Shown here piece after piece: positions 1 through 39,517 of a stretch of 64,000 bases of DNA. The notes under the pieces are model-generated. The model made no database searches and had not been told where the DNA came from. It saw only the letters and a program-made list of their open reading frames with translations. The stretch's first letter is position 1; every line of letters starts with the position of its first letter. The DNA is from Gammaproteobacteria bacterium (GTDB lineage: Bacteria; Pseudomonadota; Gammaproteobacteria; Pseudomonadales; Pseudohongiellaceae): assembly GCA_002711845.1 (NCBI GenBank), contig PASF01000002.1, positions 94,001-158,000 of the forward strand. Direction: 5' to 3'. The translations under genes and the position numbers were made by a program.

Positions 1-1265
1 TATTGCAGGAAGGTGCGTGAGCCGGTGGCAATAAATACCTCGACCGGCATGCCCGGCACCAGTGCCAGGCCATCCAGATTGGCACGGCCTTCCGGTGTGA
101 CTTCCACGCGTGCAGTGTAATAGGACGCACCGGTGTTCTCGTCAGTAAACGCATCGGCCGATACGTTGATGACCACACCCTGTATGCTCGGCACGGAGCT
201 GTTGAAAGCGGAGAAACGAATATTGGCTTCCTGACCCACGGCCACCCGGTCGATATCAATGGGTGACACACGTGCCTCGACGATCAGTTCGTCAGACTGC
301 GGTACAATGTCGGCGATTCGATAACCGGGGCCAATCACGCCGCCTTCGGTATGCACCTGCAGGCCATTCACCACGCCGGCCACCGGTGCTTTCACGACAG
401 TGCGGCTGACAATGTCACGCAGGGCATTGCGGCGCTCGGAGACATCACGCAGGTTGGTCTGTACTTCGCTGAGCCGGTTGGCCACTTCGTTCTGAAACTC
501 GCGTTCGGCCTGAATGATTTCAAGGCGGGTTTCACCGATCTGCATTTCTGTCGATGAAATATTGGCAGTCAGTTCAGCCGCTTCGCCGCGCAGGGACGAT
601 GCATTACGCTCCAGTTCGCGCAATCGGTTTTTGTCGGAAAAGCCTTCTTCCAGCAACGCGCGAACATCGTTAAGCTCTTCGCTGAATGACGCTGCCAGCT
701 CTTCTTTGCTTTCGCGCAGGGCGCGCAGACCCTGTAGTCGTGACTGAAGTTGTTCAATGCGCTGCTGCAGGACATCAACGCCACCTTCCAGCTGACTCTT
801 GCGAGTACGGAATATCTGCTCCTGTGATGCCATTTCTACCACAGCGTTAGCTTCCAGCGCAGACAGCGCCAGAGGGAATTGCACCTGTTCGAGCCCATCA
901 CGCTCGGCGATCAGGCGCGCTTCCAGTGCGCTCAGCGCCACAAACTGGGCATTGGCCATTTCCAGCTGAGCCGTCTGTTGCGTGCTGTCCAGCACCAGCA
1001 ACGGCTCACCGGCATCAACGACATCACCGCTGCGCACCAGTATCTGTTGCACAATGCCGCCCTCTAGATGTTGCACTACCTGGCGATTGGAACGCACGAT
1101 CACGGTTCCGGGTGCGTTCGCGGCGCCGTCAATGGGCGCCACGGCGGCCCACACGCCGAAGACACCAAACACCAGGAAAAATATCAGCAGGCCGACGCGC
1201 TTGGGCGACTCCATACTGGTTTCCACGTCCGGGGCTGTCGTGTTCTGTTCGTTGTTATCTGCCAC
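1..1265 (-). CDS. HlyD-family type I secretion adaptor (partial, C-terminus beyond the left edge)
   Basis: Periplasmic adaptor (membrane fusion protein) of a type I secretion system, linking the inner-membrane ABC exporter to an outer-membrane TolC-type channel. About 421 residues are visible. A short cytoplasmic tail precedes one membrane segment at residues 24-42, followed by a lipoyl/barrel-sandwich half (PGTVIVRSNRQVVQHLEGG), a long Glu/Gln/Arg/Leu-rich coiled-coil hairpin at roughly 90-270, and a second half-lipoyl plus beta-barrel region (VVKAPVAGVVNGLQVHTEGG). The reading frame runs off the window. I chose the GTG at 1265, preceded by a GGAAA stretch; the ATG at 1214 would start inside the tail, just before the membrane segment. 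It lies 54 bp downstream of the ABC gene on the same strand, so they are very probably one operon. The likely substrate is the RTX protein encoded at 10214. The family assignment is firm; the substrate is inferred. Confidence 0.93.
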   Translation of the reverse strand, partial: MADNNEQNTTAPDVETSMESPKRVGLLIFFLVFGVFGVWAAVAPIDGAANAPGTVIVRSNRQVVQHLEGGIVQQILVRSGDVVDAGEPLLVLDSTQQTAQLEMANAQFVALSALEARLIAERDGLEQVQFPLALSALEANAVVEMASQEQIFRTRKSQLEGGVDVLQQRIEQLQSRLQGLRALRESKEELAASFSEELNDVRALLEEGFSDKNRLRELERNASSLRGEAAELTANISSTEMQIGETRLEIIQAEREFQNEVANRLSEVQTNLRDVSERRNALRDIVSRTVVKAPVAGVVNGLQVHTEGGVIGPGYRIADIVPQSDELIVEARVSPIDIDRVAVGQEANIRFSAFNSSVPSIQGVVINVSADAFTDENTGASYYTARVEVTPEGRANLDGLALVPGMPVEVFIATGSRTFLQ

Positions 1266-1319: not shown

Positions 1320-3014
1320 TCACGCGCGTTTTCCGGTCAGGTTGGCCAGCACTTCATCTGTGGGGCCGAAACTGACGGCCTGGCCGTCTTTCATCACCAG
1401 CAGTTTATCCATGCCGTGCAGCACCATGGTGCGGTGAGTGATGACAATAACCGTGGCACCCTGTTCTTTCACGCGTTGCAATGCTGAAACCAGTTCGCGC
1501 TCGCCAGCATCATCCAGATTCGAGTTGGGTTCATCCAGTACCAGCAGGCGCGGGTTGCCATAGACCGCCCGTGCCAGGCCAATGCGTTGCCGCTGGCCGC
1601 CAGATAGCGCCCCACTGGCACCGCCGATGACGGTGTCGTAACCGTCTGGCAAACGCAAAATCATCTCGTGGACGCCGGCCATTCTGGCAGCGGCGACAAT
1701 CTGCTCGGCATCAGGCTCACCAAAACGGCAGATGTTGTCAGAGATGGAGCCCGTGAACAGCTCGATATCCTGGGGCAGGTATCCCACATAGGGGCCGAGC
1801 TCGCCGCGGTCCCAGGCCGCTATGTCTGCGCCGTCCAGGCGCACTTTGCCGTTCAGCGTCGGCCAGATACCCAGAATGGCGCGCGCCAGTGTGGATTTGC
1901 CGGAGGCGCTGGGCCCGACTATGCCCAGCGCTTCACCGGCCGGTAGCTCCAGTGACACACCCTTGACCACCGCATTGCGTGTGCCCGGCGGTGCCACCAT
2001 GACCTGCTCCAGCAGCAGGTGTCCCTCGGGTGCCGGCAGGCTCATGTGGTCTTTGTCGGCCGGAATGGTTTCCAGCAACTGGCCCAGGCGTTCATATTGC
2101 GCGCGTGCCACCGAGAAGCCTTTCCAGGTGCCGACCAACAGGTCGATGGGCGCCAGTGCCCGGCCCAGCAATAGGGAGCCGGCAATCATCATGCCCGGGG
2201 AAATTTCCTGTTGCAGGGCCAGCAGCGCACCCAGACCCAGGATCAGGGACTGGGTGGTGATGCGGAAGGTTTTGGATATGCTGGTCAAAACGCCGGCGGC
2301 GCGGCTGGCGTCGGTCTGCAAACCCAGTACCTCGTCGGATTTTTTCTCCTGCTCGCGGCGAATGTCGGCGGTCATGCCCATGGCCGCGATCACTTCGGAG
2401 TTGCGAATGCTGCCAGCCACCTGGCCGTTCACCTGGTTGGCCTTGGTGTTGGCGTCTTTCAGGCGTTTGGTGGTGACTTTCTCGTTGGCCCAGGCCAGCA
2501 GCACCATGACGATACCGGCGACGATGGCGACCACACCAAACCAGAAATGGAACACAAACATGATGGCCACATAGATCGGAAACCAGGGCGCATCAAAAAA
2601 GGCGAACAGGCCGTTGCCGGTCATGAACTGACGCAGGCTGGACAAATCGTTTAATGGCTGTGACGAATTATTGTTGCCCGACAGCAGGGCATTCTTGAAG
2701 GTTGCATTAAAAACCCGCTCACGTAGCTGCAGTTCAATGCGGTTACTGGCGCTGGTCAGGATCATTGAACGCACCCATTCGAAACCACCCATGGCCATGG
2801 TCAGGAACACCATCAACAGGGTCAGCATGAGCAGAGTCGAGTAGCTGCCGCTGGAGATCACACGATCGTATACCTGCAACATGTAGATGATCGGCGTCAG
2901 CATCAGGATATTGACGGCGGCGCTGAACAGGCCGGCATACAGGAAGTAGCGACGCACGGACGTCATGGCATCGTACAGTTCGGGATAGGTCACAGAGCTT
3001 TTGGGTCTATTCAT
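1320..3014 (-). CDS. Type I secretion system permease/ATPase (PrtD/RsaD-like ABC exporter)
   Basis: Inner-membrane ABC exporter that powers one-step secretion of RTX-type proteins. At 564 residues it has the usual length of PrtD-like exporters, which lack a C39 peptidase domain. The N-terminal half (about 20-300) is the membrane domain with several hydrophobic segments. The C-terminal half carries Walker A (GPSASGKST, about 366-374), the ABC signature LSGGQRQRIGLARA (about 470) and Walker B LLVLDEPNSNLD (about 490), followed by the H-loop (VIVITHR). It lies upstream of the hlyD-like gene in one transcription unit. The ATG at 3014 has no clear Shine-Dalgarno sequence and is preceded by a 14-nt tandem repeat containing three further ATG codons. 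No outer-membrane channel gene is visible; it may lie left of the window or elsewhere. Confidence 0.95.
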   Translation of the reverse strand: MNRPKSSVTYPELYDAMTSVRRYFLYAGLFSAAVNILMLTPIIYMLQVYDRVISSGSYSTLLMLTLLMVFLTMAMGGFEWVRSMILTSASNRIELQLRERVFNATFKNALLSGNNNSSQPLNDLSSLRQFMTGNGLFAFFDAPWFPIYVAIMFVFHFWFGVVAIVAGIVMVLLAWANEKVTTKRLKDANTKANQVNGQVAGSIRNSEVIAAMGMTADIRREQEKKSDEVLGLQTDASRAAGVLTSISKTFRITTQSLILGLGALLALQQEISPGMMIAGSLLLGRALAPIDLLVGTWKGFSVARAQYERLGQLLETIPADKDHMSLPAPEGHLLLEQVMVAPPGTRNAVVKGVSLELPAGEALGIVGPSASGKSTLARAILGIWPTLNGKVRLDGADIAAWDRGELGPYVGYLPQDIELFTGSISDNICRFGEPDAEQIVAAARMAGVHEMILRLPDGYDTVIGGASGALSGGQRQRIGLARAVYGNPRLLVLDEPNSNLDDAGERELVSALQRVKEQGATVIVITHRTMVLHGMDKLLVMKDGQAVSFGPTDEVLANLTGKRA

Positions 3015-3246: not shown

Positions 3247-3948
3247 TCACAGTTCTTCCGCGCCTTCGGCCAGTTGTTTCAGGGCGCCGGTGTCGGTCAC
3301 CAGCAGCATGCCCGGTCCGTCGCGCCTGACGATCTGCCGGGTCTGCAGAATCTGGAACACGCGGCTCACCGATTCACGGCTCAGGCTCAGCATGATGGCG
3401 ATTTCCATGTGCGTGGGCGGATTCAGAATCACTGTGTCCTGCAGGCTATCGCGCGCTTTCTCCGGCACCAGCATCCACAGCTGGCAGCACACCCGCTGAC
3501 TGATACTGGGCAGGCCCAGAAGAGAGCGCTGGCGGGTCATCTGCCGCACTCTTGCCGCCAGCCGCTCGCCCAGCATGTTCAGTAGAATGGGGGCCTGCAG
3601 GGACGCCTCGCGCAGGCTGTCCATGGGCACAAACACGACCACTGCCGCGGTCAGCGCGATGACAAACTCAGGCTGGGGCCCGTGATCAAACATGCCCAGT
3701 TCGCCACAGAAGTCGCCGGGTTCCACAAAATACAGTCCCACTTCGCGGCCATCTATTGTAAAATCAACACCCTGCAGGCGGCCTTCAAACAGGAAGCACA
3801 CGCTTTCCTCGCGCACGCCGGCGTTTAGCACCACGGCGCGGCGGGCAAACTTGCGCACACTGGACTGCTGCGCAAGGTGGTTGAGTGTGGCTTGTGGCAG
3901 CGGCTTCAGACCCGGAAAGGTTGCCAGAAGCTCCGGCGTGACCTGCAT
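3247..3948 (-). CDS. Crp/Fnr-family transcription regulator with altered nucleotide pocket
   Basis: Cytoplasmic DNA-binding regulator of 233 residues. Residues 10-115 form the cyclic-nucleotide-binding jelly roll, about 120-150 the dimerisation helix, and about 170-230 the winged helix-turn-helix. The recognition helix reads LSRESVSRVF, keeping Arg191, Glu192 and Arg196, which correspond to the TGTGA-reading residues of E. coli CRP. The phosphate-binding cassette is recognisable (GELGMFDHG) but has Pro93-Glu94 where CRP has the cAMP-contacting Arg-Ser, so cAMP binding is doubtful. The ATG at 3948 matches the family start; the frame stays open upstream but adds 78 unlikely residues. The gene is divergent from the fecR operon, with a Crp-type box between them. 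There are no Fnr-type N-terminal cysteines. DNA target and ligand are inferred from alignment by eye. Confidence 0.9.
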   Translation of the reverse strand: MQVTPELLATFPGLKPLPQATLNHLAQQSSVRKFARRAVVLNAGVREESVCFLFEGRLQGVDFTIDGREVGLYFVEPGDFCGELGMFDHGPQPEFVIALTAAVVVFVPMDSLREASLQAPILLNMLGERLAARVRQMTRQRSLLGLPSISQRVCCQLWMLVPEKARDSLQDTVILNPPTHMEIAIMLSLSRESVSRVFQILQTRQIVRRDGPGMLLVTDTGALKQLAEGAEEL

Positions 3949-4167
3949 GTGGCGCTCTCTGCTGTGAGGTATCTCTGTGTTGTGAGATCTTGTTATCCGG
4001 CCCTGCAATAGGCGCAAACCGTTGTGTGGCGGGCGTTGTATACAGTCGAAGCCATTATAGTAAGTTAATGCCGAATAGCAAACGCGTCGCTTTCGGTGTG
4101 TGCAGCGGCACAAAAGCGGCACAGGAGTGGCATAAAGAAGACACAAAAAACGGGAACTTGAGGCCGG

Positions 4168-4183
4168 TGTGACCGCAATCACT
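4168..4183. promoter_or_regulatory. Crp-type operator upstream of the fecR operon
   Basis: TGTGA-CCGCAA-TCACT matches the TGTGA-N6-TCACA consensus at 9 of 10 positions. Its centre (4175.5) lies 64 bp before the fecR ATG and about 227 bp before the divergent crp-like start. If it acts as a class II site (centre at -41.5), transcription would begin near 4217. Functional use is inferred. Confidence 0.6.
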
Positions 4184-4239
4184 CGCGGCGCCGGTCTATT
4201 GGGGTAGGCTTACATTCACGCTTGGACAGGACTGACCCG

Positions 4240-5676
4240 ATGAACCAGAAACCGATTAAATCAGGCCTTTATTACGCCTTGATGACAGCGCTGTTGGTGG
4301 CAATGCCGCTGGTTGGCACGTCTGTGGCTGTTGCTCAGGCGTCCGCGCCGCTGACCATCACTGCATCTCAGCCCGCCGTCGGTGAGGTCAGTCTGGTGCT
4401 GGGCAGGGCCTGGCTGATCTCGGAAAGTGGTCGCCAGGCGGCCGTGGCCCCGGGCACCGAAGTCCGCGCTACCGATCGCATTCTCACCGAAGCCAATGGT
4501 CACGTCCACATCCGCTTTGTGGATCAGGCGCTGGTCAGTGTGCGCCCGGACAGCCGCCTGGAAATCGTGCAGTACGACTACAATGCCGACCAGCCTGCCC
4601 TGTCTGCCATCAAACTGAACCTGGAAGAAGGCATTACCCGCGCCATCTCCGGCCACGGCGCCAGCGCCGCGCGCGACCGTTTTCGACTGAACACCCCCAT
4701 TGCCGCCATCGGCGTGCGTGGCACCGACTTTGTGGTCAGCGCCACGCCCCGGGCGGTGCGCGCGCTGGTCAACGAAGGGGTGATCGTGATGGCGCCGTTC
4801 TCCAGCGATTGCAGTGCCGACAGCTTCGGCCCCTGTCTGGTCAACGCCGTGGAGTTGACCGGCAGCTCCCTGCAGGTCATCGAACTGGAAGGTAGCAGCA
4901 CCGCGCCGCGCCTGTTGCCCGCGGTGGTCGAGCGTGGTCCCGGTATGATGGAAGAGGAAGTGCAGCTTGCCATGAACGATGCGCAGGGTAACGCTGACGA
5001 CAAGAATGCCGGCACCGGTATTTACCTGGAAAGTGTGACGTCACAGCGTGTCAAGGACGAGGCTGCCAGTGTGACATCGCCAAAACAACCACAGCCGGAG
5101 CCGCAGCCGCCGACGCAACCCCGGCCCGACGTGGTTGATTTTACGCCCGCCACCGCAATTGCCGGTGCCGAACTGTCGCAAAGAAACCTGATCTGGGGGC
5201 GCTGGGCCGATGGCCAGGCGGAGCAGGAACGTATTACTGTTGCCATGGCTGAGGCAAGCGCCGGCCGTGATGTCACCATTCCCGGCGGTGCAGACTATCT
5301 GCTGTTCCGTGACGGCAACGGTGGCGAGCGTATTGCCAGCGGCCTGGGCACCGTCAGTTTTGGCCTGGCCAGTGCGCAGGCGTTTTATCATTCAGACAGC
5401 GGCGTCGCGACCATGGCTGTCAATGACGGCTCGCTGGATATCAATTTTGACAGCAGCCGATTTGCGACATCGTTACAACTGAATCACAGCCTGACCGGCA
5501 ATGTGCAGTTCAGCGCCAGTGGCCGGTTGTATGACGGTGGCTATTTCCATACCCGTTCGGACACTGAACGCATGGCCGGCGCTGTCAGCCTTGACGGCCA
5601 GGAAGCCGGTTACTTCTTCGAGAAACAGCTGGAAAGCGGCAATATTCAAGGCCTGACATTGTGGGACGCCCGTTGA
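4240..5676 (+). CDS. FecR-domain periplasmic protein
   Basis: Exported protein of 478 residues. An N-terminal signal segment (about residues 6-34, ending near VAVAQA) precedes a FecR domain at about 50-170, with features such as GRAWLISESG, ATDRILTEANGHVHIRFVD and the closing GVRGTDFVV. A Pro/Gln-rich linker (about 285-300) leads to a C-terminal region of unknown fold rich in beta-type sequence. FecR domains in such proteins commonly bind or sense envelope components. The next gene, the CHASE2 cyclase, begins one base after this stop, so the two are translationally coupled and probably work together. I chose the ATG at 4240, with GGACAGGAC upstream; a TTG at 4222 is an alternative. The ligand is unknown. 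Confidence 0.85.
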   Translation: MNQKPIKSGLYYALMTALLVAMPLVGTSVAVAQASAPLTITASQPAVGEVSLVLGRAWLISESGRQAAVAPGTEVRATDRILTEANGHVHIRFVDQALVSVRPDSRLEIVQYDYNADQPALSAIKLNLEEGITRAISGHGASAARDRFRLNTPIAAIGVRGTDFVVSATPRAVRALVNEGVIVMAPFSSDCSADSFGPCLVNAVELTGSSLQVIELEGSSTAPRLLPAVVERGPGMMEEEVQLAMNDAQGNADDKNAGTGIYLESVTSQRVKDEAASVTSPKQPQPEPQPPTQPRPDVVDFTPATAIAGAELSQRNLIWGRWADGQAEQERITVAMAEASAGRDVTIPGGADYLLFRDGNGGERIASGLGTVSFGLASAQAFYHSDSGVATMAVNDGSLDINFDSSRFATSLQLNHSLTGNVQFSASGRLYDGGYFHTRSDTERMAGAVSLDGQEAGYFFEKQLESGNIQGLTLWDAR

Positions 5677-5677
5677 C

Positions 5678-7702
5678 ATGCAGCACCTGTCCCGTCTGAA
5701 TCAGCTTGTCAATCCGGTAGCACTCGCCCTGCGTCTGCTGCCCGCGCGCGGGCGCCTGGTGATGCTGGCACTCGCAGCTGCGCTGAGTGCGGTGCTGTTG
5801 AACCTGTTTGCCGGTCCGCTGGAGACGCTGGAAGAACGCCTGGGCGCTCAGGGCTGGTTGATGTCGGCCGACGACACGCCGGAAGAGCGCATCACCATTG
5901 TTGCCATTGATGAAGCCAGCCTCGCTGAAATTGGTGCCTGGCCCTGGCCGCGCAGTGACATGGCGCGCCTGGTTACTGGTCTGAATGCTGCCGGTGTGCA
6001 GCTGCAACTGCACGATATTACCTACCCGGAGCCACGCGAGGGCGACGAACAACTGATCGCGGCCCTGGAGGCCTCGCGGGGCGCGGTGCTGGCGCAGGTG
6101 CCGGTGATGCCGGCCAACGGCCAGCAGGAGCAGAACGTCCGAACCGGCGTCATGACTTTCCCGCTAACCGGCGTGGATTGCGCTGCCGCAGCCAACAGAA
6201 CGAACAGTTTTATTGCCCCGCACGCGGGTTTCAGTGCCATCCCCAAGGGGCACATCGCACCCATCGTTGCCAGTGACGGCGGTATTCGCAAGGTGCCCGC
6301 GTTTGTCTGTGTTGATGGTCAGGCCTACCCGGCGCTGGCACTCAGCGCGCTGCTGCAGGCCACCAATGCGCCCACTTGGTCGGTCAACCTGAGCGAAGGC
6401 AGCGGCCTTTTGGCGCCCGAGCAGGTATTGCGTCTGGATGCCTACCCCGGCCTGAACATTCCACTGGATGCCGAGGGCAACCTGCGCATCTCTTACAAAG
6501 ACCTTCCGCAAAACTTCCGCGCGGTGTCCGCGGTTGATGTCATCAACGGCAACATTGAGCCTGGCATGCTGGAAAATGCCTGGGTGCTGGTAGGCGGCAC
6601 CGCTTTCGGCATGGGTGATATTGTGCCCACACCGTATAACGGCGCCACGCCCGGCGTGGAATTGCAGGCCCGCCTGCTGGGCAGCCTGCTGGATACCACC
6701 ATGCCCTACACGCCTCGTGGCGCGGAATGGCTGCTGACGCTGCTGGCGCTGGTGTTTGCCGGTACCGCCCTGTTGCTGGCCAGCGCCCGAGAGCGGGTTG
6801 CGGCATACGGACTGCCGACGGCCGCGTTACTGATGCCAATTGTCGCCGTGTCCCTGCACTGGCAGTTACTCGCGGCCTATGAAATCTGGCTGGGCTGGTT
6901 GTTCCCGGCGGTGTTTGGCCTGTTGGCTGCCAGCCTGTTGCTGCTGCTGGAGCAAAGCCGCGTGCGCGCCGAGCGCAGCCGCGTGTTTGGCAATCTGAAC
7001 AGCTATTTGCCCAGTGACATTGCCCGCGAGATAGCCTTCAGTCTGCCCAGCTCGGCCATTAATGCCCGACGCTGTGATGTCACCCTGCTCAGCGCTGATC
7101 TGCGTAACTTCTCTGCCTTTGGTGAAGCGCGTCCGCCGGAAGAATCGGCCGCCCTGCTGCACTTCTTTTTTGTCAAAGCCGCTGCCATTGTGGAACAGCA
7201 TGGTGGTCGCATTCAGGAGTTCAAGGGCGACAGCCTGCTGGCGGTGTGGGACGGCCAGAACGCCGAGGCTGCCCGGCATGCGCTGGCCGCCGGCCAGGAC
7301 ATGCAGGTTATCGTTGACAGGGACATGCCGCAAAATCCGCCCGCCGGCCTGGAGCCACTGGCGCTGGGCATCGGCATCGAACAGGGCCCGGCGCTGGTCG
7401 GTTCCATTGGTCCGGCCAACCGCCGTACCCATACCCTGCTCGGCGACACGGTCACCATCACCCTGCGTATCCAGGAAATGACGGCCGAGCTGGCGCAGCC
7501 GATTCTGCTGGGTGAATGTGTGGCCCGTCAGCTCAGCGATCTGAAGCCTGAATCCCAGGGCAGCTACCTGCTCAACGGTCTGCGTATTCCGCACACGCTG
7601 TTTGCTCCGGCTGTTGATGCCACGCAAAGCGACACCCCCCGCCGTAACGCCCGCGCCGAGCAGCTCAACCTGAAGATTGTGTCGGGTGGTAAAGGCGCAT
7701 AA
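5678..7702 (+). CDS. CHASE2-domain class III nucleotide cyclase with non-canonical active-site residues
   Basis: Membrane-bound sensor of 674 residues. It has an N-terminal membrane segment (about 25-48), a periplasmic CHASE2 domain (about 50-340), two or three membrane segments (about 350-430), and a C-terminal cyclase domain (about 450-625). The metal-binding aspartates are present (Asp474 in LLSADLRNF, Asp518 in FKGD). At the purine-specifying position, where adenylate cyclases have Lys (KFIGD), this protein has Glu514 (EFKGD). The transition-state Asn of the VNxAxR motif is Thr593 (VTITLR), with Arg597 kept. Activity and substrate (ATP, GTP or none) are therefore uncertain. It starts one base after the fecR stop. 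A signalling role from FecR/CHASE2 through the cyclase is inferred from the operon. Confidence 0.88.
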   Translation: MQHLSRLNQLVNPVALALRLLPARGRLVMLALAAALSAVLLNLFAGPLETLEERLGAQGWLMSADDTPEERITIVAIDEASLAEIGAWPWPRSDMARLVTGLNAAGVQLQLHDITYPEPREGDEQLIAALEASRGAVLAQVPVMPANGQQEQNVRTGVMTFPLTGVDCAAAANRTNSFIAPHAGFSAIPKGHIAPIVASDGGIRKVPAFVCVDGQAYPALALSALLQATNAPTWSVNLSEGSGLLAPEQVLRLDAYPGLNIPLDAEGNLRISYKDLPQNFRAVSAVDVINGNIEPGMLENAWVLVGGTAFGMGDIVPTPYNGATPGVELQARLLGSLLDTTMPYTPRGAEWLLTLLALVFAGTALLLASARERVAAYGLPTAALLMPIVAVSLHWQLLAAYEIWLGWLFPAVFGLLAASLLLLLEQSRVRAERSRVFGNLNSYLPSDIAREIAFSLPSSAINARRCDVTLLSADLRNFSAFGEARPPEESAALLHFFFVKAAAIVEQHGGRIQEFKGDSLLAVWDGQNAEAARHALAAGQDMQVIVDRDMPQNPPAGLEPLALGIGIEQGPALVGSIGPANRRTHTLLGDTVTITLRIQEMTAELAQPILLGECVARQLSDLKPESQGSYLLNGLRIPHTLFAPAVDATQSDTPRRNARAEQLNLKIVSGGKGA

Positions 7703-7821: not shown

Positions 7822-8073
7822 ATGAAAATTGTGTCCTTTACCGAAGCGCGAAACGGCTTGAAGGCGGTACTCGACGGTGTCGTTAATGATGCCGATACGA
7901 CGATAATCAATCGTCGTGACGCCGACGATGCTGTTGTCATGTCGCTGGATTATTACAATAGCCTGATGGAAACTGTGCATTTGCTGCGTTCGCCTGCAAA
8001 CGCAAAACATCTCAGCAAATCAATTGTCCAGTATCACGCTGGTAATGTCAGGCCGGGAGAGCTGGAGAATTAA
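7822..8073 (+). CDS. yefM: YefM/Phd-family antitoxin
   Basis: Antitoxin of 83 residues of the Phd/YefM family. The N-terminus (MKIVSFTEARNGLKAVLDGV) is the typical DNA-binding part, followed by the conserved DAVVMSLDYYNSLMET stretch; the C-terminal tail would wrap the toxin. It precedes the YoeB-like toxin by three bases, the usual antitoxin-first order. Antitoxin-toxin complexes of this family repress their own promoter; the inverted GGCT-ATAG-AGCC at about 7790-7801, before the ATG, could be part of an operator. The pair sits between the cyclase and the barrel gene, and base composition by eye is more AT-rich than its neighbours, which suggests an inserted mobile cassette. Confidence 0.92.
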   Translation: MKIVSFTEARNGLKAVLDGVVNDADTTIINRRDADDAVVMSLDYYNSLMETVHLLRSPANAKHLSKSIVQYHAGNVRPGELEN

Positions 8074-8076
8074 AAG

Positions 8077-8337
8077 GTGAGTAGACTTTTGTCATGGACT
8101 GACGAAGCCTGGCGCGATTATTTATACTGGCAGGGGCAGGATCGCAAAACGCTCCGCCGTATCAACAGGTTGATAAATGAAGCCATGCGCACACCATTTA
8201 CCGGATTAGGCAAGCCGGAACCACTTCGTGAAAACCTGACAGGCTTTTGGTCGCGACGCATTGATGACACGAACCGTCTGGTTTACGCTGCAGATGACTT
8301 GGCGCTCACCGTTATTTCGTGTCGATATCACTATTGA
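8077..8337 (+). CDS. yoeB: YoeB-family mRNA interferase toxin
   Basis: Ribosome-dependent endoribonuclease of 86 residues, full length for YoeB. The conserved residues are all visible: TPFTGLGKPEPL with Glu48, SRRIDDTNRLVY with Arg67, and the C-terminal CRYHY with His85 and Tyr86. Its target is mRNA in the ribosomal A site when the antitoxin is degraded. The GTG start at 8077 follows the antitoxin stop with an AAAAGG ribosome site overlapping it. There is no sign of inactivation. Both genes are intact, so the cassette is predicted functional. Confidence 0.94.
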   Translation: MSRLLSWTDEAWRDYLYWQGQDRKTLRRINRLINEAMRTPFTGLGKPEPLRENLTGFWSRRIDDTNRLVYAADDLALTVISCRYHY

Positions 8338-8416
8338 CCTGCCAGCGTAGCTGAATGGCCAAAACTTCACAGCCCCGCTATTGCTTAGCGGCAGGCGATT
8401 CAAGATAATTGCCCGC

Positions 8417-9871
8417 ATGCCATTCAGCGCCCCGCCCGATCACAACAATGCAGTATCCCCCGGCTCCCGGAACACGCCCCGGACAGGCGCTGGCCCTTTG
8501 TATATCCTGCCACCCGCTGTCACAACGGCAGCGCTATGCCTGGTGCTGTGTCTGGGCATCGCCACGCCTGCGTACAGCCAGTCGACACCGGCGACGCAAA
8601 CCTGCCCCGACCTGACACCCTTGTTGCAGCAAAACCCGCAACTGCCCGCCGACTGGGCGCAGATCGAACAGCAACTGGAGCCCCTGTTACCCCGCTGCCT
8701 GCAAAGCACAGACTACTTTGCCTTAAGAGGTGCCGCACAACTGAACACCGGCCGCCTGGATCGCGCGCTGGAATCGCTGGAGCGCGCCCTGCTGCTGAGC
8801 CCTGACAACGGCGGTGCCCAGATGGATTATGCGCAGGCCCTGTACCTGCAGGGCCAGTTGTTCTCGGCGCTGGACCTGAACCGTCAGTTGCTGGCGCGCG
8901 ATGATCTGCCCGCCGGCTTGCAGACGGTGCTGCAGGATCGCCAGCAGACCTGGCGCGGCATGACCCGGCAAACCAGCCTGCAGGCCGACGTACTGGTGGG
9001 CTACGACAACAACCTCAATGGCGCGCCGGCGCCGGGGCAGATTACCCTGACGCTGTCTGGGGAACCGGTGGTCTTGCCGCTGAACCCGGAATTCCGGCCC
9101 AAACGCGGCCCGTATGTGAACCTGCGCCTGGGGGGTCGCTACCGGCAGCTGGCACCTGAACATCAGCACAATGTATTGGTCGAGCTGCGCGGCCGGGTTA
9201 GTGACGATCAGGCCTCCGATCTGGTGCAACTGGACGCGCGATATGCTTTTATCAAGCCTGGCAGCGAGCGCAGCTGGCAACTCAACGCCGGCATGAGCCA
9301 TCTGTTTTTCGGCGGCAGCCCGCTGTATACCGCCACCGAAGCCGGTGGCCGGTTTATGCCCGATGCCAGCCTGGGCGTGTGCCGGCCACAGCTCAGCGCG
9401 ATTGCCCAGCACCAGCTGTTTCACGATCAAAGCCGGCTTAATGCCGTGGAAAGCAAAGTCGGCGCCGGGCTTAACTGCACGCTGGCAAACCGCTTGGGCC
9501 CGCAGCTGGTGATCGCTGAACTGAGCGCCCTGAACAACAGCCCCATCCGTACTGGCAGGCCCGGCGGCAGCCGCCAGGGCTGGCAGTTTAATGTGGACTG
9601 GCAATGGCAGCTGCCGCGCGGCGTGCTGCTGACCCAGCTCAATCACACCGAAACCGACGACAAACGTGGTTACAGCCCCATCCTGGCCGAGGGCGCGCAG
9701 CGTGAAATCAAGCGCAGCTACGTGTTACTGCAGTACCGCCGGCCCCTGCTGCCCGGCCGGCCCGACACCACCCTGCTGTTTAACGTTTACCACCAGAAGC
9801 AGCGCAGCAACCTGGAGCTGTTCCGCAGCACCGATAGCACGGTCGAGATTGGTATCAGTCATCGTTTCTGA
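8417..9871 (+). CDS. TPR-containing outer-membrane beta-barrel protein (Slam/DUF560-like, tentative)
   Basis: Predicted outer-membrane protein of 485 residues. A long N-terminal region with a hydrophobic segment ends near ATPAYSQ (about residue 55) and could be a signal peptide. Tetratricopeptide-type helices follow at about 90-170 (ALRGAAQLNTGRLDRALESLERALLLSPD, listed here only as a landmark region). From about 185 to the end the sequence alternates polar and hydrophobic residues, as in barrel strands, and finishes with a terminal Phe (GISHRF), the classic BAM signal. TPR plus barrel, size, and the VGYDNNLNGAP opening resemble surface-lipoprotein assembly modulators. It lies 342 bp upstream of the RTX gene and may help surface assembly. 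The ATG at 8417 has a weak ribosome site; a TTG at 8381 is possible. Confidence 0.7.
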   Translation: MPFSAPPDHNNAVSPGSRNTPRTGAGPLYILPPAVTTAALCLVLCLGIATPAYSQSTPATQTCPDLTPLLQQNPQLPADWAQIEQQLEPLLPRCLQSTDYFALRGAAQLNTGRLDRALESLERALLLSPDNGGAQMDYAQALYLQGQLFSALDLNRQLLARDDLPAGLQTVLQDRQQTWRGMTRQTSLQADVLVGYDNNLNGAPAPGQITLTLSGEPVVLPLNPEFRPKRGPYVNLRLGGRYRQLAPEHQHNVLVELRGRVSDDQASDLVQLDARYAFIKPGSERSWQLNAGMSHLFFGGSPLYTATEAGGRFMPDASLGVCRPQLSAIAQHQLFHDQSRLNAVESKVGAGLNCTLANRLGPQLVIAELSALNNSPIRTGRPGGSRQGWQFNVDWQWQLPRGVLLTQLNHTETDDKRGYSPILAEGAQREIKRSYVLLQYRRPLLPGRPDTTLLFNVYHQKQRSNLELFRSTDSTVEIGISHRF

Positions 9872-10081: not shown

Positions 10082-10097
10082 TGTGACTGACGTCACA
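10082..10097. promoter_or_regulatory. Perfect Crp-type operator upstream of the RTX gene
   Basis: TGTGA-CTGACG-TCACA matches TGTGA-N6-TCACA at all ten positions. It lies in the 342-bp gap 9872-10213, which has no gene. With the centre at 10089.5, a class II geometry (-41.5) places transcription at about 10131 and the -10 hexamer at 10119-10124, where TATCCT stands. The rest of the gap holds a small CTAATAATTAG palindrome (9906-9916) and nothing else I could identify. Confidence 0.7.
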
Positions 10098-10118: not shown

Positions 10119-10124
10119 TATCCT
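10119..10124 (+). promoter_or_regulatory. Candidate -10 hexamer of the RTX gene promoter
   Basis: TATCCT matches the -10 consensus at four of six positions. It is exactly where a class II Crp-activated promoter would need it relative to the box at 10082-10097. It implies a leader of about 83 nt before the ATG at 10214. The AAGGAG ribosome site is at 10199-10204. Confidence 0.45.
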
Positions 10125-10213
10125 TGGCACAGCCGATATGCGGTCATTTGCTGTTTAGGCATGTCACAATCGGATAAAACAATTTGGAATTAATCCTTAA
10201 GGAGTTACAACAG

Positions 10214-12865
10214 ATGGCGACAATCGAAACTCGTGCAGAGCTCATCACCATAGTAGTAGCAATGTTTGACGCTGCTCCCGGTGTTGCAGTTCTCTCTGAC
10301 CTGACAGCCGCTTCCGATGCCGGCAACAGCAATACAGCAATCGCTGCAAGCCTGGCCAACAGCGCGGAATTCAAAAGCATTTTCCCAACATTCCTGGCGA
10401 ATTCAGAATTCGTAGGCAAGCTGGTAGACCAGATGGTCGGCAACTTGGTTGTGGCAGCTGAAAAAGACGCAATCAAAACTATCCTGACTGCCGAAATGAA
10501 CGCTGGTGCAACTCGCGTTGATGTTGTGTTGACTGCCGTAGCTGCACTGAAAGCAATTCCTGAGACTGATTCGGTCTGGGGCAACGCTGCAGCTGCATTC
10601 AACAACAAAGTTGAAGTTGCTACATTCCACACTGTTGAAAAGCAGCAGGCCACTACTTCACTGGCTGACCTGCAGGAAGTTCTCGCTACTATCGATAACA
10701 CAGAAGCCAGCGTGACTTCAGCTAAATCTGAGATTACTGGCGACGCTGAAGCGGGTCAGTCTCTCTCCCTGACTGGCAACCAAGATACGCTGACTGGTGG
10801 TGCTGGTAACGACACATTCACTGCGGGTGCTGCACAAGACGGCAACGGTACTCTGATCAACACCCTGCAGGGCGTAGACGTACTGGATGGCGGTGCAGGT
10901 ACCGATACCATCAACATCACATTGACCGGCGGCGCAGTAGTTGCCCCCAGCATGTCTAACATCGAAAACGTTACTGTTCGTGTGACCAATGCTGCAGACT
11001 CACTGAGCCTGTCTGGCGCGTCTGGCGTGACCAACGTGACAGTAGCTAACAGCACAGTTGCTTCTACAGCAGCAACCGGCACAGTAAGTGGCGTTGCTGG
11101 TGCAGCCCTGACAGTAAAGAATCAGTCAAACGCTGTATCATTTGATGGTTCTACCGGTTCAGCGCTGACGCTGACTTTTGACACCGTGGGTTCTTCGTCT
11201 GCCCGCACTGCAATTGACTTGGGTAAGGCAACTGCCGCTAAAGCGACAAGCGCGACAATCACTGCAAACAATGCACACGTCAATGTCGATTCAACTGCAG
11301 CTGATGTATTCACATCTGCCACTGTTGCAGCGACTGGCTCCAACACCATTGACTTCACTGACAGTGCCGCGACTCTGACTTCCTTGACCGTGTCTGGTGC
11401 CGGTTCACTGAAGACTTCCAATGTCGACCTGACCAAAGTTGCTACCCTGACTGCCGGTGACGGCGGCGTGACCTTCAAAGGTGGCTCAGCAGCCACGTCA
11501 TTCTCTGCCACTACAGGTTCAGGTAAAGACTCACTGACAGTTGCTGGTACAAACCTGAAGTCTGTAGATACCGGTGCAGGCAACGACTCAGTGACTGTAT
11601 CAAGTGCACTGGCTGCAACGTCTACAGTTACTCTGGGTGCAGGCGATGACACCATTACACTGCAAGCAGCCCCTTCAGCTGGCGCAACTATCACTGCTGG
11701 TGATGGCACTGACACTATTGGACTGGCACTGGCTGACTACACAACTGTCTCTGGTTACTCGTCTACTAACCTGGCGAAAATCAGCGGCTTTGAAGTTCTG
11801 AGCATCACTGACGCGCTGACTGCAGCCGTTAACGTATCCAAGCTGTCTGGTATCACCAGCTTCCAGACCGTTGGTGCAACTGGTGCGCAGACTGTATCTG
11901 GCCTGGGTGCAAACGCCTCTGTTACATTGAATGGTGACATCGTTACCAACAATGGCGCATTGACGCTGACCATGACAGACGCAACTGGCTCAAGCGACGT
12001 GCTGAACCTGACGCTGAACCACAAGGCGGCTCTGGCTTCAAACTCAAACACTGCCGTAACGTCTACCGTTGCTGTTGCAGGTGTTGAAACGCTGAACGTC
12101 AACACGGGTGTCACCAGCACAACTGCTGGTGCCACGAACGTTAAGGCAACTTACACGCTGGCACTGGGTGCGACAGCTACTTCGCTGGCGACACTGGACG
12201 TTAACGGTTCGCAAGCAGTTAGCTTTACTTCTAATGCTGCGCTGACCAAGTTGGCTACTGTTGATGCATCAGACAACACTGGTGGTGTGACGATTGATGC
12301 TTCTGCTGCCACAGCGGCAGCTGCTGCACTGACTATCACTGGTTCTGCCACTGCGGCGAACACCCTGACCGGTGGTGCCAAAGGTGACACGCTGATTGGT
12401 GGTTCCAAAGGCGACACACTGACAGGTGGTGCTGGTGCAGACACGCTGACGGGCGGCGCTGGTAATGACATCTTCGCCTACACAGCGGCCAATCAGTCCA
12501 ACCTGATTGCTCTGGACACGATCACTGACTTCAGTGCAAACACCTTCGGCAACGGCACTAACGGTGCTGCCGGTACAGGTGCAACTACAACAGTTGCTTC
12601 ACGAACTGGTGACGTACTGAGCTTCGACGTGGCTGCTGCCCAGGTTACTGCTGGCGCACTGGTAAGCGTTCAGAGCAATGCTTCTGACGCACAGACCTTC
12701 CTGCAGAACACCGCTGCGAACGGTACTGCTAACCAGGTTGGCGTTGCGCTGGATAGCTCTTCCAACCGACTGTATGTGGATTGGGACAGCGATGGTACAG
12801 CTGATAGCGTGATTGTGCTGACAGGTGTTACTACGATCGACGCAGCAGCTATCCTGCTGGTGTAA
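10214..12865 (+). CDS. Large RTX/S-layer-like secreted protein
   Basis: Predicted secreted surface protein of 883 residues, strongly enriched in Thr, Ala, Ser and Gly, with no cysteine that I could find. An N-terminal helical domain (about 1-170) is followed by a first RTX-type motif (GGAGNDTF, about 195) and long Thr-rich stretches typical of beta-solenoid or S-layer domains. Scattered calcium-type motifs (GAGNDSVTV, GAGDDTITL, GDGTDTIGL at about 455-505) precede a cluster of RTX nonapeptides at about 718-756 (GGAKGDTL, GGSKGDTL, GGAGADTL, GGAGNDIF). The last 125 residues have the DTITDF pattern and hydrophobic end expected of a type I secretion signal. There is no Sec signal peptide. The ATG at 10214 has a strong AAGGAG site nine bases upstream. 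Codons look highly optimised and a strong terminator follows, consistent with abundant expression. Confidence 0.88.
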   Translation: MATIETRAELITIVVAMFDAAPGVAVLSDLTAASDAGNSNTAIAASLANSAEFKSIFPTFLANSEFVGKLVDQMVGNLVVAAEKDAIKTILTAEMNAGATRVDVVLTAVAALKAIPETDSVWGNAAAAFNNKVEVATFHTVEKQQATTSLADLQEVLATIDNTEASVTSAKSEITGDAEAGQSLSLTGNQDTLTGGAGNDTFTAGAAQDGNGTLINTLQGVDVLDGGAGTDTINITLTGGAVVAPSMSNIENVTVRVTNAADSLSLSGASGVTNVTVANSTVASTAATGTVSGVAGAALTVKNQSNAVSFDGSTGSALTLTFDTVGSSSARTAIDLGKATAAKATSATITANNAHVNVDSTAADVFTSATVAATGSNTIDFTDSAATLTSLTVSGAGSLKTSNVDLTKVATLTAGDGGVTFKGGSAATSFSATTGSGKDSLTVAGTNLKSVDTGAGNDSVTVSSALAATSTVTLGAGDDTITLQAAPSAGATITAGDGTDTIGLALADYTTVSGYSSTNLAKISGFEVLSITDALTAAVNVSKLSGITSFQTVGATGAQTVSGLGANASVTLNGDIVTNNGALTLTMTDATGSSDVLNLTLNHKAALASNSNTAVTSTVAVAGVETLNVNTGVTSTTAGATNVKATYTLALGATATSLATLDVNGSQAVSFTSNAALTKLATVDASDNTGGVTIDASAATAAAAALTITGSATAANTLTGGAKGDTLIGGSKGDTLTGGAGADTLTGGAGNDIFAYTAANQSNLIALDTITDFSANTFGNGTNGAAGTGATTTVASRTGDVLSFDVAAAQVTAGALVSVQSNASDAQTFLQNTAANGTANQVGVALDSSSNRLYVDWDSDGTADSVIVLTGVTTIDAAAILLV

Positions 12866-19645: not shown

Positions 19646-19661
19646 TGTGAGCTGCATCACC
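19646..19661. promoter_or_regulatory. Crp-type operator upstream of the GGDEF-EAL gene
   Basis: TGTGA-GCTGCA-TCACC matches the Crp consensus at 9 of 10 positions. It lies immediately upstream of a sigma-28-like promoter (19671-19697). Activation or repression cannot be told from the sequence. Confidence 0.5.
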
Positions 19662-39363: not shown

Positions 39364-39517
39364 AAACGGTGGCTTGTAGCGCTATTGAGACGAACATCAC
39401 AGTTTTTGCGATAGTTTTACTGAAAAAGCGGATATTTCGTCGTTTTTCGTTAAAAACTGTATTCCCAGCGACAAAATATAGCGGTACACTGCTTTTAGGG
39501 TTCAGTGTCGAATCCAG

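What the first reader, a model, noticed from the sequence alone, without database searches (positions are those of the whole stretch)
3247..7702. Cyclase and Crp homologue both diverge at cAMP-specific residues
The CHASE2 cyclase has Glu514 where adenylate cyclases carry the adenine-specifying Lys, and Thr593 in place of the transition-state Asn. The neighbouring Crp homologue has Pro-Glu (93-94) instead of the cAMP-binding Arg-Ser but keeps the DNA-reading Arg-Glu-Arg. Matched loss at both ends suggests a signal pair using another nucleotide, or one uncoupled from nucleotides. The residues are seen; the alignment is by eye against known family motifs.
Basis: partly seen in the sequence, partly recalled or inferred. 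Interest (0 to 1): 0.7.

Follow-up and report, generated by a model that had tools for sequence, protein, structure and literature searches.

The report
Rewired cyclase–Crp surface-protein control module
In a family of mostly marine bacteria, a signal-making enzyme and the neighbouring gene regulator have both lost residues used to make and sense cyclic AMP, yet matching DNA sites in front of a secreted surface protein gene are kept almost perfectly, so the pair looks like a rewired relative of the textbook cyclic-AMP switch.

Summary
In 60 cyclases (59 relatives and the window) Glu514 is invariant, the Asn position is never Asn, both metal Asps are invariant and Arg597 is kept in 58 of 59 readable. 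The Crp homologue lacks Arg-Ser, but the residues at those places are Gln92-Pro93; Glu94 replaces the next one. The DNA-reading Arg-Glu-Arg is invariant.

The pair belongs to a four-gene module (Crp-like regulator, FecR, CHASE2 cyclase, TPR protein) also found in other Gamma- and Betaproteobacteria. Loci with cyclase Lys keep Crp Arg-Ser (13 of 13); loci without Lys lack it (77 of 77, 58 of them family-type). The tree shows one joint change, so these are not independent counts.

New: a TGTGA-N6-TCACN site lies before fecR (58 of 58) and before a type I-secreted RTX protein (41 of 42), in this family at class II CRP spacing. In two single-contig relatives without canonical Crp, the only perfect site is the RTX one.

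Best reading: a class II activator without a working cyclic-phosphate pocket, beside a metal-competent cyclase with a guanylyl-type Glu-Thr pair. Uncoupling is favoured over a new nucleotide; biochemistry must decide.

The parts
3247..3948 (-). Crp/Fnr-family regulator, 233 aa (cNMP_binding PF00027 and HTH_Crp_2 PF13545); no cAMP-type phosphate motif
   Evidence: Pfam; residues; conservation; model mean pLDDT 91.5; Foldseek best hits GlxR, Clr and CRP structures
3667..3675 (-). codons of Gln92-Pro93-Glu94, at the places of Arg82-Ser83-Ala84 of E. coli CRP
   Evidence: register from gapless homologues and from Clr contacts; conservation
3361..3378 (-). recognition helix codons Arg191, Glu192, Arg196 (DNA-reading residues kept)
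   Evidence: 57 of 57 for each
4054..4081 (-). sigma70-like promoter of the regulator gene, TTGCTA-N16-TATAAT
4168..4183 (+). CRP-type site TGTGACCGCAATCACT between crp and fecR
   Evidence: at most 1 mismatch in 58 of 58 loci, shuffle mean 0.48
4205..4210 (+). -10-like TAGGCT, 21 bases after the site: class II spacing
   Evidence: TANNNT at offset 21 or 22 in 58 of 58 loci
4240..5676 (+). FecR-domain protein (PF04773), presumably periplasmic (signal peptide judged by eye)
   Evidence: Pfam; in order crp, fecR, cyclase in 58 of 58 loci that hold all three
5678..7702 (+). CHASE2 class III cyclase, 674 aa
   Evidence: Pfam PF05226 and PF00211; PDB hits
5789..6760 (+). CHASE2 domain (aa 38-361)
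7076..7537 (+). cyclase catalytic domain (aa 467-620)
7217..7219 (+). Glu514, purine-specifying position (Lys in adenylyl, Glu in guanylyl cyclases)
   Evidence: 60 of 60; alignment to 2w01
7433..7435 (+). Thr586, second purine position
   Evidence: Thr 42, Ala 8, Val 8, Ser 1, gap 1 of 60
7454..7456 (+). Thr593 in place of the transition-state Asn; Arg597 four residues on is kept
8381..9871 (+). TPR protein with a presumed outer-membrane beta-barrel C-terminus (barrel inferred from the sequence, not predicted by a tool)
   Evidence: Pfam TPR; conserved in the module
10082..10097 (+). perfect CRP-type site TGTGACTGACGTCACA upstream of the RTX gene
10119..10124 (+). -10-like TATCCT, class II spacing
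   Evidence: 41 of 41 RTX sites have TANNNT at offset 21 or 22
10214..12865 (+). RTX, S-layer-like secreted protein (HemolysinCabind), probable output gene
   Evidence: Pfam; site upstream
1320..3014 (-). PrtD-type type I secretion ABC transporter
   Evidence: TIGR01842 738.7 bits, cut-off 510.15
1..1265 (-). HlyD membrane-fusion protein, cut by the window edge; a TolC/OEP gene follows outside the window
   Evidence: L104

Best explanation
This is the derived form of a four-gene envelope-signalling module. The other form, seen in genomes of Undibacterium's family and placed outside the derived clade by the tree, pairs a CHASE2 cyclase of adenylyl type with a Crp regulator that has an intact phosphate motif. 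In the derived form both ends changed on the same branch. The regulator has lost the Arg-Ser that grips the cyclic phosphate and gained a Glu there, so it most likely works without binding cAMP or cGMP in the usual way (inferred). It reads TGTGA-N6-TCACA sites and acts as a class II activator of two promoters: fecR-cyclase-TPR, and the RTX surface protein exported by the neighbouring type I system (site, spacing and conservation shown; binding and activation inferred). The FecR, TPR and CHASE2 proteins form the envelope-sensing side (inferred by analogy). The cyclase keeps both metal Asps and the catalytic Arg and carries a guanylyl-type Glu-Thr pair; it is probably a GTP-preferring or weak cyclase whose product no longer enters the regulator's pocket (inferred).
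For: Residue states and conservation. Lys/Arg-Ser 13, non-Lys/non-Arg-Ser 77, mixed 0 of 90 readable loci; derived rows form one clade. Both metal Asps present in 60 of 60 and in 91 of 91 readable loci of the wider set. Site in 58 of 58 crp-fecR stretches and 41 of 42 RTX upstreams against shuffle means near 0.5, and in 0 of 59 TPR upstreams. TANNNT at offset 21 or 22 in 58 of 58 fecR promoters and 41 of 41 RTX promoters with a site, which equals a site centred at -41.5. Site also in 18 of 20 non-Lys loci outside the family but 1 of 13 Lys loci. G071 and G078, single-contig genomes, lack canonical Crp at E 1e-20, and the one perfect site in each lies upstream of an RTX gene at the same spacing. 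Clr contacts the phosphate of cAMP and cGMP with the same Arg and Ser.
Against: No binding or activity was measured. The coupled change is one event, so the correlation cannot be given a probability. Invariance of Glu514 in 60 of 60 and of the metal Asps suggests that a specific substrate still matters, which sits better with a nucleotide switch than with uncoupling. Glu94 could belong to a new ligand pocket. The canonical Crp found in 19 of the 21 same-family genomes tested has the same DNA-reading residues and may share the sites. In the window as a whole such sites are not enriched (20 seen, 29.3 expected at up to 2 mismatches), and the reversed control pattern also occurs once in G078; the case rests on position and conservation. 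Six of 56 abc upstreams also have a site. Outside the family the class II spacing is mostly not seen: 4 of 18 derived loci with a site have TANNNT at 21 or 22. Eight of 37 family loci long enough have no RTX match within 1.5 kb after the TPR gene, so the RTX output may not be universal.
Confidence: 0.52

Rival explanations
1. Nucleotide switch: the cyclase makes cGMP (or another cyclic nucleotide) and the regulator's reshaped pocket senses it, giving a private channel insulated from the cell's own cAMP-Crp pair.
For: Glu-Thr is a guanylyl-type pair; a K101E/D157T mutant of Ma1120, which lacks the Asn, showed enhanced guanylyl cyclase activity (PMC4215837 Discussion). Cya2 is a CHASE2 guanylyl cyclase with Glu and the best PDB match. 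Glu514 invariant in 60 of 60 and Glu94 in 57 of 57. Both ends changed on one branch. A canonical cyclase and Crp exist elsewhere in the genome, so insulation would be useful.
Against: Clr uses the same Arg and Ser for cAMP and cGMP, and both are gone here. An added Glu would repel a phosphate. In Betaproteobacterial members the purine position varies (Ser, Ala, Gln, Asn, Arg, Glu) while the regulator stays without Arg-Ser. The Tyr that enhances guanylyl activity in Cya2 (passage) is Leu596 here. Lys to Glu abolished activity in CyaG and Rv1625 (same Discussion).
Confidence: 0.2
2. Clp-like control: the regulator binds DNA without ligand and is switched by another molecule such as c-di-GMP, as Xanthomonas Clp is.
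For: Clp binds DNA ligand-free and c-di-GMP is its inhibitor (PMC12937710 passages). That Clp has a Glu next to its Arg in this loop is recalled, not from a call.
Against: Clp keeps an Arg in the phosphate motif according to the same passages; here that place is Gln 65, Pro 6, Ala 3, Leu 1, Gly 1 and Arg 1 of 77 derived loci. Close relationship to Clp was not tested.
Confidence: 0.13
3. Pseudo-cyclase: the cyclase domain is catalytically dead and signals, if at all, by protein contact or nucleotide binding.
For: No Asn in the derived loci read; L258-L260 have also lost the Arg. The purine position varies in Betaproteobacteria.
Against: Both metal Asps in 91 of 91 readable loci, and Arg597 in 58 of 59 in the window's family. 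Ma1120 shows that Asn is dispensable.
Confidence: 0.1
4. The conserved sites belong to the canonical Crp-cAMP of the cell, and the local regulator is a bystander.
For: The genome has a canonical Crp/Vfr with Arg-Ser (L004), with the same recognition residues; 19 of 21 same-family genomes tested have one.
Against: Sites persist in G071 and G078, where no canonical Crp was found and the RTX site is the only perfect one, and in Betaproteobacterial genomes where only 28-37% identical paralogues or no match were found. Site presence follows the state of the local regulator.
Confidence: 0.05

Closest known systems
Cya2 of Synechocystis (CHASE2 guanylyl cyclase, PDB 2w01)
   Same: CHASE2 sensor plus class III domain; Glu at the purine-specifying place; closest PDB sequence, E 4.9e-23
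   Different: Cya2 keeps the transition-state Asn, has Gly as second purine residue and a Tyr before the Arg; here Thr593, Thr586 and Leu596. No linked regulator of this kind is described in the passages read.
Sinorhizobium meliloti NsrA - CyaD1/D2/K - Clr pathway
   Same: outer-membrane receptor plus CHASE2 cyclase plus Crp-family regulator; Clr targets include a FecR-domain and a TPR protein (PMC5498481, PMC7529298, PMC13001267 passages)
   Different: Clr keeps Arg-Ser and is activated by cAMP or cGMP; the passages read do not describe these genes as one locus; no link to RTX export seen
Xanthomonas Clp
   Same: Crp relative that binds DNA without a ligand (PMC12937710 passages)
   Different: Clp keeps Arg98 of the phosphate motif; no neighbouring cyclase known to me (recalled)
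E. coli CRP / Pseudomonas Vfr class II activation
   Same: same operator TGTGA-N6-TCACA and same spacing to -10 (spacing rule recalled)
   Different: no cAMP pocket motif in this regulator
RTX S-layer type I loci (e.g. Methylomicrobium album BG8, PrtD-HlyD-TolC-S-layer genes in PMC13274458 passages)
   Same: PrtD-type ABC, HlyD, TolC and a large secreted surface protein
   Different: here a Crp-like/FecR/CHASE2 module is embedded and a CRP-type promoter precedes the RTX gene; the words Crp, FecR and CHASE2 do not occur in that paper's main text

Membership tests
class III nucleotide cyclase | Pfam Guanylate_cyc domain over cut-off | tested here: met
   34.3 bits against 21.9
class III nucleotide cyclase | two metal-binding Asps | tested here: met
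   D474 and D518, 60 of 60
class III nucleotide cyclase | transition-state Asn and Arg | tested here: not met
   Asn replaced in 59 of 59 readable; Arg597 kept in 58 of 59. A known active exception without Asn exists
adenylyl cyclase (ATP-specific class III) | Lys at the purine-specifying place | tested here: not met
   Glu514 60 of 60
guanylyl cyclase, Cya2 type | Glu at the purine-specifying place | tested here: met
guanylyl cyclase, Cya2 type | makes cGMP | not testable with these tools
   no assay possible
cAMP receptor protein (CRP/Vfr) | cNMP_binding and Crp HTH domains | tested here: met
   49.5 and 42.8 bits
cAMP receptor protein (CRP/Vfr) | NCBIfam equivalog PRK11753 cut-off | tested here: not met
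   73.3 bits against 266
cAMP receptor protein (CRP/Vfr) | Arg82-Ser83 phosphate contacts | tested here: not met
   Gln92-Pro93
cAMP receptor protein (CRP/Vfr) | Arg-Glu-xxx-Arg recognition helix and TGTGA-N6-TCACA sites | tested here: met
   57 of 57; sites; actual binding not tested
Clp-type ligand-free Crp relative | binds DNA without ligand, released by c-di-GMP | not testable with these tools
   needs purified protein
NsrA-CHASE2-Clr pathway | Crp relative activated by cAMP from the CHASE2 cyclase | not testable with these tools
   phosphate motif absent here; present in the Lys-type module of Undibacterium's family
RTX type I secretion locus | PrtD-type ABC, HlyD, TolC and RTX substrate together | tested here: met

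The most novel reading that the evidence does not exclude
A complete cyclic-nucleotide signalling pair switched its nucleotide in one step: synthase and receptor changed on the same branch. This gave a private channel for cGMP, or for a non-canonical cyclic nucleotide held without the classical Arg-Ser clamp, beside the cell's cAMP-Crp, reading the same DNA word, and dedicated to building a type I-secreted surface layer.
Probability: 0.18. Interest if true: 0.85.

Novelty: new variant of a known kind. Interest (0 to 1): 0.6.

Why it matters
It is a natural before-and-after pair. Module relatives keep a complete cAMP-type cyclase and receptor; the derived clade has changed both ends yet keeps the locus. 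That makes a general question testable: how does a second-messenger pair change its messenger or do without one, and what keeps it apart from the host's own cAMP-Crp when both read the same DNA sequence. It also names a predicted, very small regulon (own operon plus an RTX surface protein) and a promoter type for a type I-secreted, S-layer-like protein.

Tried and rejected
Cyclase structure: the model was usable only for part of the protein (mean pLDDT 63.8; aa 580-674 under 50), so Thr593 rests on sequence alignment, not on the model. Foldseek with it gave class III cyclases, 2w01 among them.

Whole-window count of CRP-like sites: not above chance; I rely on position and conservation instead.

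Canonical Crp as reader of the sites: considered and mostly rejected.

The other four perfect sites in the own genome: no shared theme with the module seen; not followed.

RNA hairpin in the RTX leader: seen, alignment too gappy for a clean covariation count; left as an aside.

Literature for this module: the searches in the held library listed 2 and 8 papers; none that I looked into describes a Crp-FecR-CHASE2-TPR locus, but I read only passages of PMC5498481 and PMC13001267 from them and the rest are known as listings. One search for inactive class III cyclases found nothing.

Labels in the tree: rows marked x were put in the non-Lys group by my script; L277, L279 and L264 in fact have Lys and L301 and L302 have Ser. 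Read that way the non-Lys rows form one clade (100/99). L261 is a loose module member without FecR or TPR.

Rows dropped: of 63 relatives with at least 49% identity, 60 were fetched (G028, G057, G058, partial matches, were not); 59 plus the window passed the length filter for the cyclase and 56 plus the window for the regulator. L060, L092 and L095 lack the crp-fecR pair; only 42 of 61 loci had an RTX match starting near the protein's N-terminus with 300 bases before it. In one search loci with a gap at a read position were left out, and L165 and L174 as duplicates; L169 and L170 are near copies and both counted.

Full report
What was claimed and what is there. The finding names a CHASE2 cyclase (5678-7702, +) and a Crp homologue (3247-3948, -; the ORF runs to 4182, but comparison with relatives puts the start at the Met at 3948). 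Residues Glu514 and Thr593 are as stated, and Asp474, Asp518 and Arg597 are canonical. Pfam finds CHASE2 and Guanylate_cyc in one, cNMP_binding and a Crp-type HTH in the other, FecR in the gene between them, and TPR and RTX repeats in genes further on.

Alignment check, cyclase. The best PDB sequence is 2w01 (E 4.9e-23), the guanylyl cyclase Cya2 (title). Glu514 aligns with a Glu and Thr593 with an Asn, without gaps nearby. The second-ranked chain, 6fht, shows Lys at the same place; in that work the E488K variant of Cya2 has adenylyl cyclase activity (PMC5995499, passages).

Alignment check, regulator. HMMER needs a one-residue gap against E. coli CRP at Arg82. Module relatives that still have Arg-Ser align gaplessly (GELSVIDGLPRSASV against GELGMFDHGPQPEFV; L176) and place Arg, Ser, Ala over Gln92, Pro93, Glu94. 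The contacts of Clr (Gly85, Glu86, Arg95, Ser96; PMC10127613, passages) have the same spacing. The AlphaFold model (mean pLDDT 91.5) puts 87-94 in the loop between helix 83-86 and strand 95-98 and matches GlxR, Clr and CRP structures.

Conservation. The genus is Pseudohongiella, judged from titles of near relatives. A cyclase match was found in 82 of 144 genomes searched, among them all 14 other genomes of the same genus. I fetched 60 of the 63 relatives with at least 49% identity. The order regulator (-), fecR, cyclase and, where reached, TPR protein (+) holds in 58 of 58 loci that have the first three. The PrtD-type ABC gene lies behind the regulator in 52 of 53 loci with room. An RTX match follows within 1.5 kb in 29 of 37 loci with room; four have no match and four have one further off or on the other strand (G078 and G071, two of these last, do have an RTX gene with the site). 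Of 60 cyclases, D474, E514 and D518 are 60/60; position 593 is T 47, S 6, A 4, G 2, gap 1; R597 is 58 of 59 readable. Of 57 regulators, Q92 is 56, P93 55, E94 57, and R191, E192, R196 are 57 each. As a baseline, of the 29 best other profile matches of a class-wide search all have Lys, and all 28 readable have Asn.

The own genome has another class III cyclase with Lys, Asn and Arg (L001) and a Crp/Vfr protein with Arg-Ser (L004). The window pair is therefore an extra, divergent set; this CHASE2 protein is the only CHASE2 match in the genome.

Beyond the family. The regulator, fecR, cyclase and TPR genes stay together in Marinomonas, Aquaspirillum serpens, Rhodoferax, Acidovorax, Xenophilus and Undibacterium, and the first three in Oceanospirillum; near them the family's ABC gene matched at most 54 bits and the RTX gene not at all. 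More came from searches centred on Burkholderiales genomes: 11 of 399, 12 of 294 and 11 of 250 genomes at E 1e-112, 1e-120 and 1e-120, the centre genomes included. In 90 loci with both ends readable, 13 have Lys with Arg-Ser, 77 have another residue with no Arg-Ser, none is mixed; 58 of the 77 are from the window's family or close to it. The derived purine residue is Glu in the window's family and Glu, Ser, Ala, Gln, Asn or Arg elsewhere. The residue after the lost motif is Glu in 76 of 77 derived regulators (Asp in L163). The tree puts the derived form in one clade (100/99) with Lys forms outside it (see Tried and rejected for label errors). This is one joint change, not 90 independent ones. 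The Asn is already Val or Ile in the Lys cyclases of Undibacterium's family, so its loss came before that of Lys, or happened more than once.

Operator sites. The stretch between crp and fecR holds TGTGA-N6-TCAC plus one base in 58 of 58 loci (56 with one mismatch, 2 perfect; shuffled mean 0.48, maximum 3). The 300 bases before the RTX start hold it in 41 of 42 (40 perfect; shuffled mean 0.5, maximum 2). The TPR upstream has 0 of 59; the abc upstream 6 of 56. In the window these are 4168-4183 and 10082-10097. After the site, TANNNT begins at offset 21 or 22 in 58 of 58 fecR promoters and in 41 of 41 RTX promoters; on the crp side only 5 of 58 have it at 19-22. A 16-base core centred at -41.5 puts a -10 hexamer at offset 21, so this is class II geometry (recalled knowledge of CRP promoters). 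Outside the family only 4 of 18 derived loci with a site show it, so the promoter type is shown for this family alone. The crp gene has its own TTGCTA-N16-TATAAT promoter at 4081-4054.

Which protein reads the sites. Canonical Crp was not found at E 1e-20 in G071 and G078 (it was in 19 of 21 same-family genomes tested). They are single-contig genomes whose contig lengths equal those of OX638341.1 and OX638323.1. Each has one perfect site in the whole genome, against 5-7 in the three relatives with canonical Crp. The reversed control pattern gave 0-1 per genome (1 in G078), so the number alone is not above chance; the place is telling, since in both the site lies about 105 bases before the RTX start codon with TATGCT at the class II place. 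Outside the family, 18 of 20 derived loci but 1 of 13 Lys loci have a site near the regulator's start. This ties the site to the derived regulator. It does not show binding, and in genomes with canonical Crp both proteins may use it.

How it probably works. Shown: residues, conservation, linked gene order, sites, spacing, co-variation. Inferred: the regulator activates both promoters; it does so without a cyclic mononucleotide in the classical pocket, since Clr uses the same Arg and Ser for cAMP and cGMP and both are gone here; the FecR, TPR and CHASE2 proteins sense something at the envelope, by analogy with the NsrA-CHASE2-Clr route of S. meliloti (PMC7529298 and PMC13001267 passages), where Clr targets include a FecR-domain and a TPR protein (PMC5498481 passages). 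The cyclase is metal-competent by its residues and guanylyl-like. Ma1120 has Ala for the Asn, is active, loses activity when Asn is put in, and showed enhanced guanylyl activity with a Glu-Thr pair; but the same text notes that Lys to Glu abolished activity in CyaG and Rv1625 (PMC4215837 Discussion). Activity therefore cannot be read from sequence.

Verdict. A real, conserved and interesting divergence, richer than first described: a new variant of the known CHASE2 cyclase plus Crp-type pathway. Uncoupling of the regulator is the favoured mechanism, a nucleotide switch is the bold alternative, and both are open to simple in vitro tests.

Noticed in passing
window 7822-8337: A Phd/YefM antitoxin and YoeB toxin gene pair (Pfam) sits between the cyclase and the TPR gene. 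Relatives L039 and L040 have no room for it, while L041 has a gap of similar size.
   Followed up: partly
window 4168-4183 and 10082-10097: The crp-fecR site ends in T, C or G in 56 of 58 loci, whereas the RTX site is the perfect palindrome in 40 of 42. The constant one-base asymmetry is unexplained.
   Followed up: no
window 10125-10213: The leader of the RTX gene is strongly conserved and seems to form a hairpin (CCGAT...ATCGG in the window; ACGAT...ATCGT and CGATT...AATCG in relatives, by eye).
   Followed up: partly
L258-L260 (cyclase and regulator): Three module members from the Burkholderiales-centred search have lost Lys, Asn and the catalytic Arg together while keeping both Asps: possible true pseudo-cyclases.
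   Followed up: no
L075, L076, L079, L082: Family loci with the module and the crp-fecR site but no RTX match after the TPR gene; the output gene there is unknown.
   Followed up: no
L104 1708-4221, just outside the window: Sugar-nucleotide genes that look like the dTDP-rhamnose set (named by eye) lie near the TolC gene, reminiscent of S-layer and O-antigen neighbourhoods.
   Followed up: no
L119, L113: Metagenome bins titled Klebsiella pneumoniae and Rhodoferax sp. OV413 carry this locus at 67% and 73% identity; the titles are probably wrong.
   Followed up: no
window 19646-19661 and 39386-39401: Two further one-mismatch CRP-like sites, not examined for neighbours or conservation.
   Followed up: no
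own genome C6:37863, C9:117109, C13:86788, C13:266370: The only other perfect TGTGA-N6-TCACA sites of the genome; no link to the module seen.
   Followed up: partly
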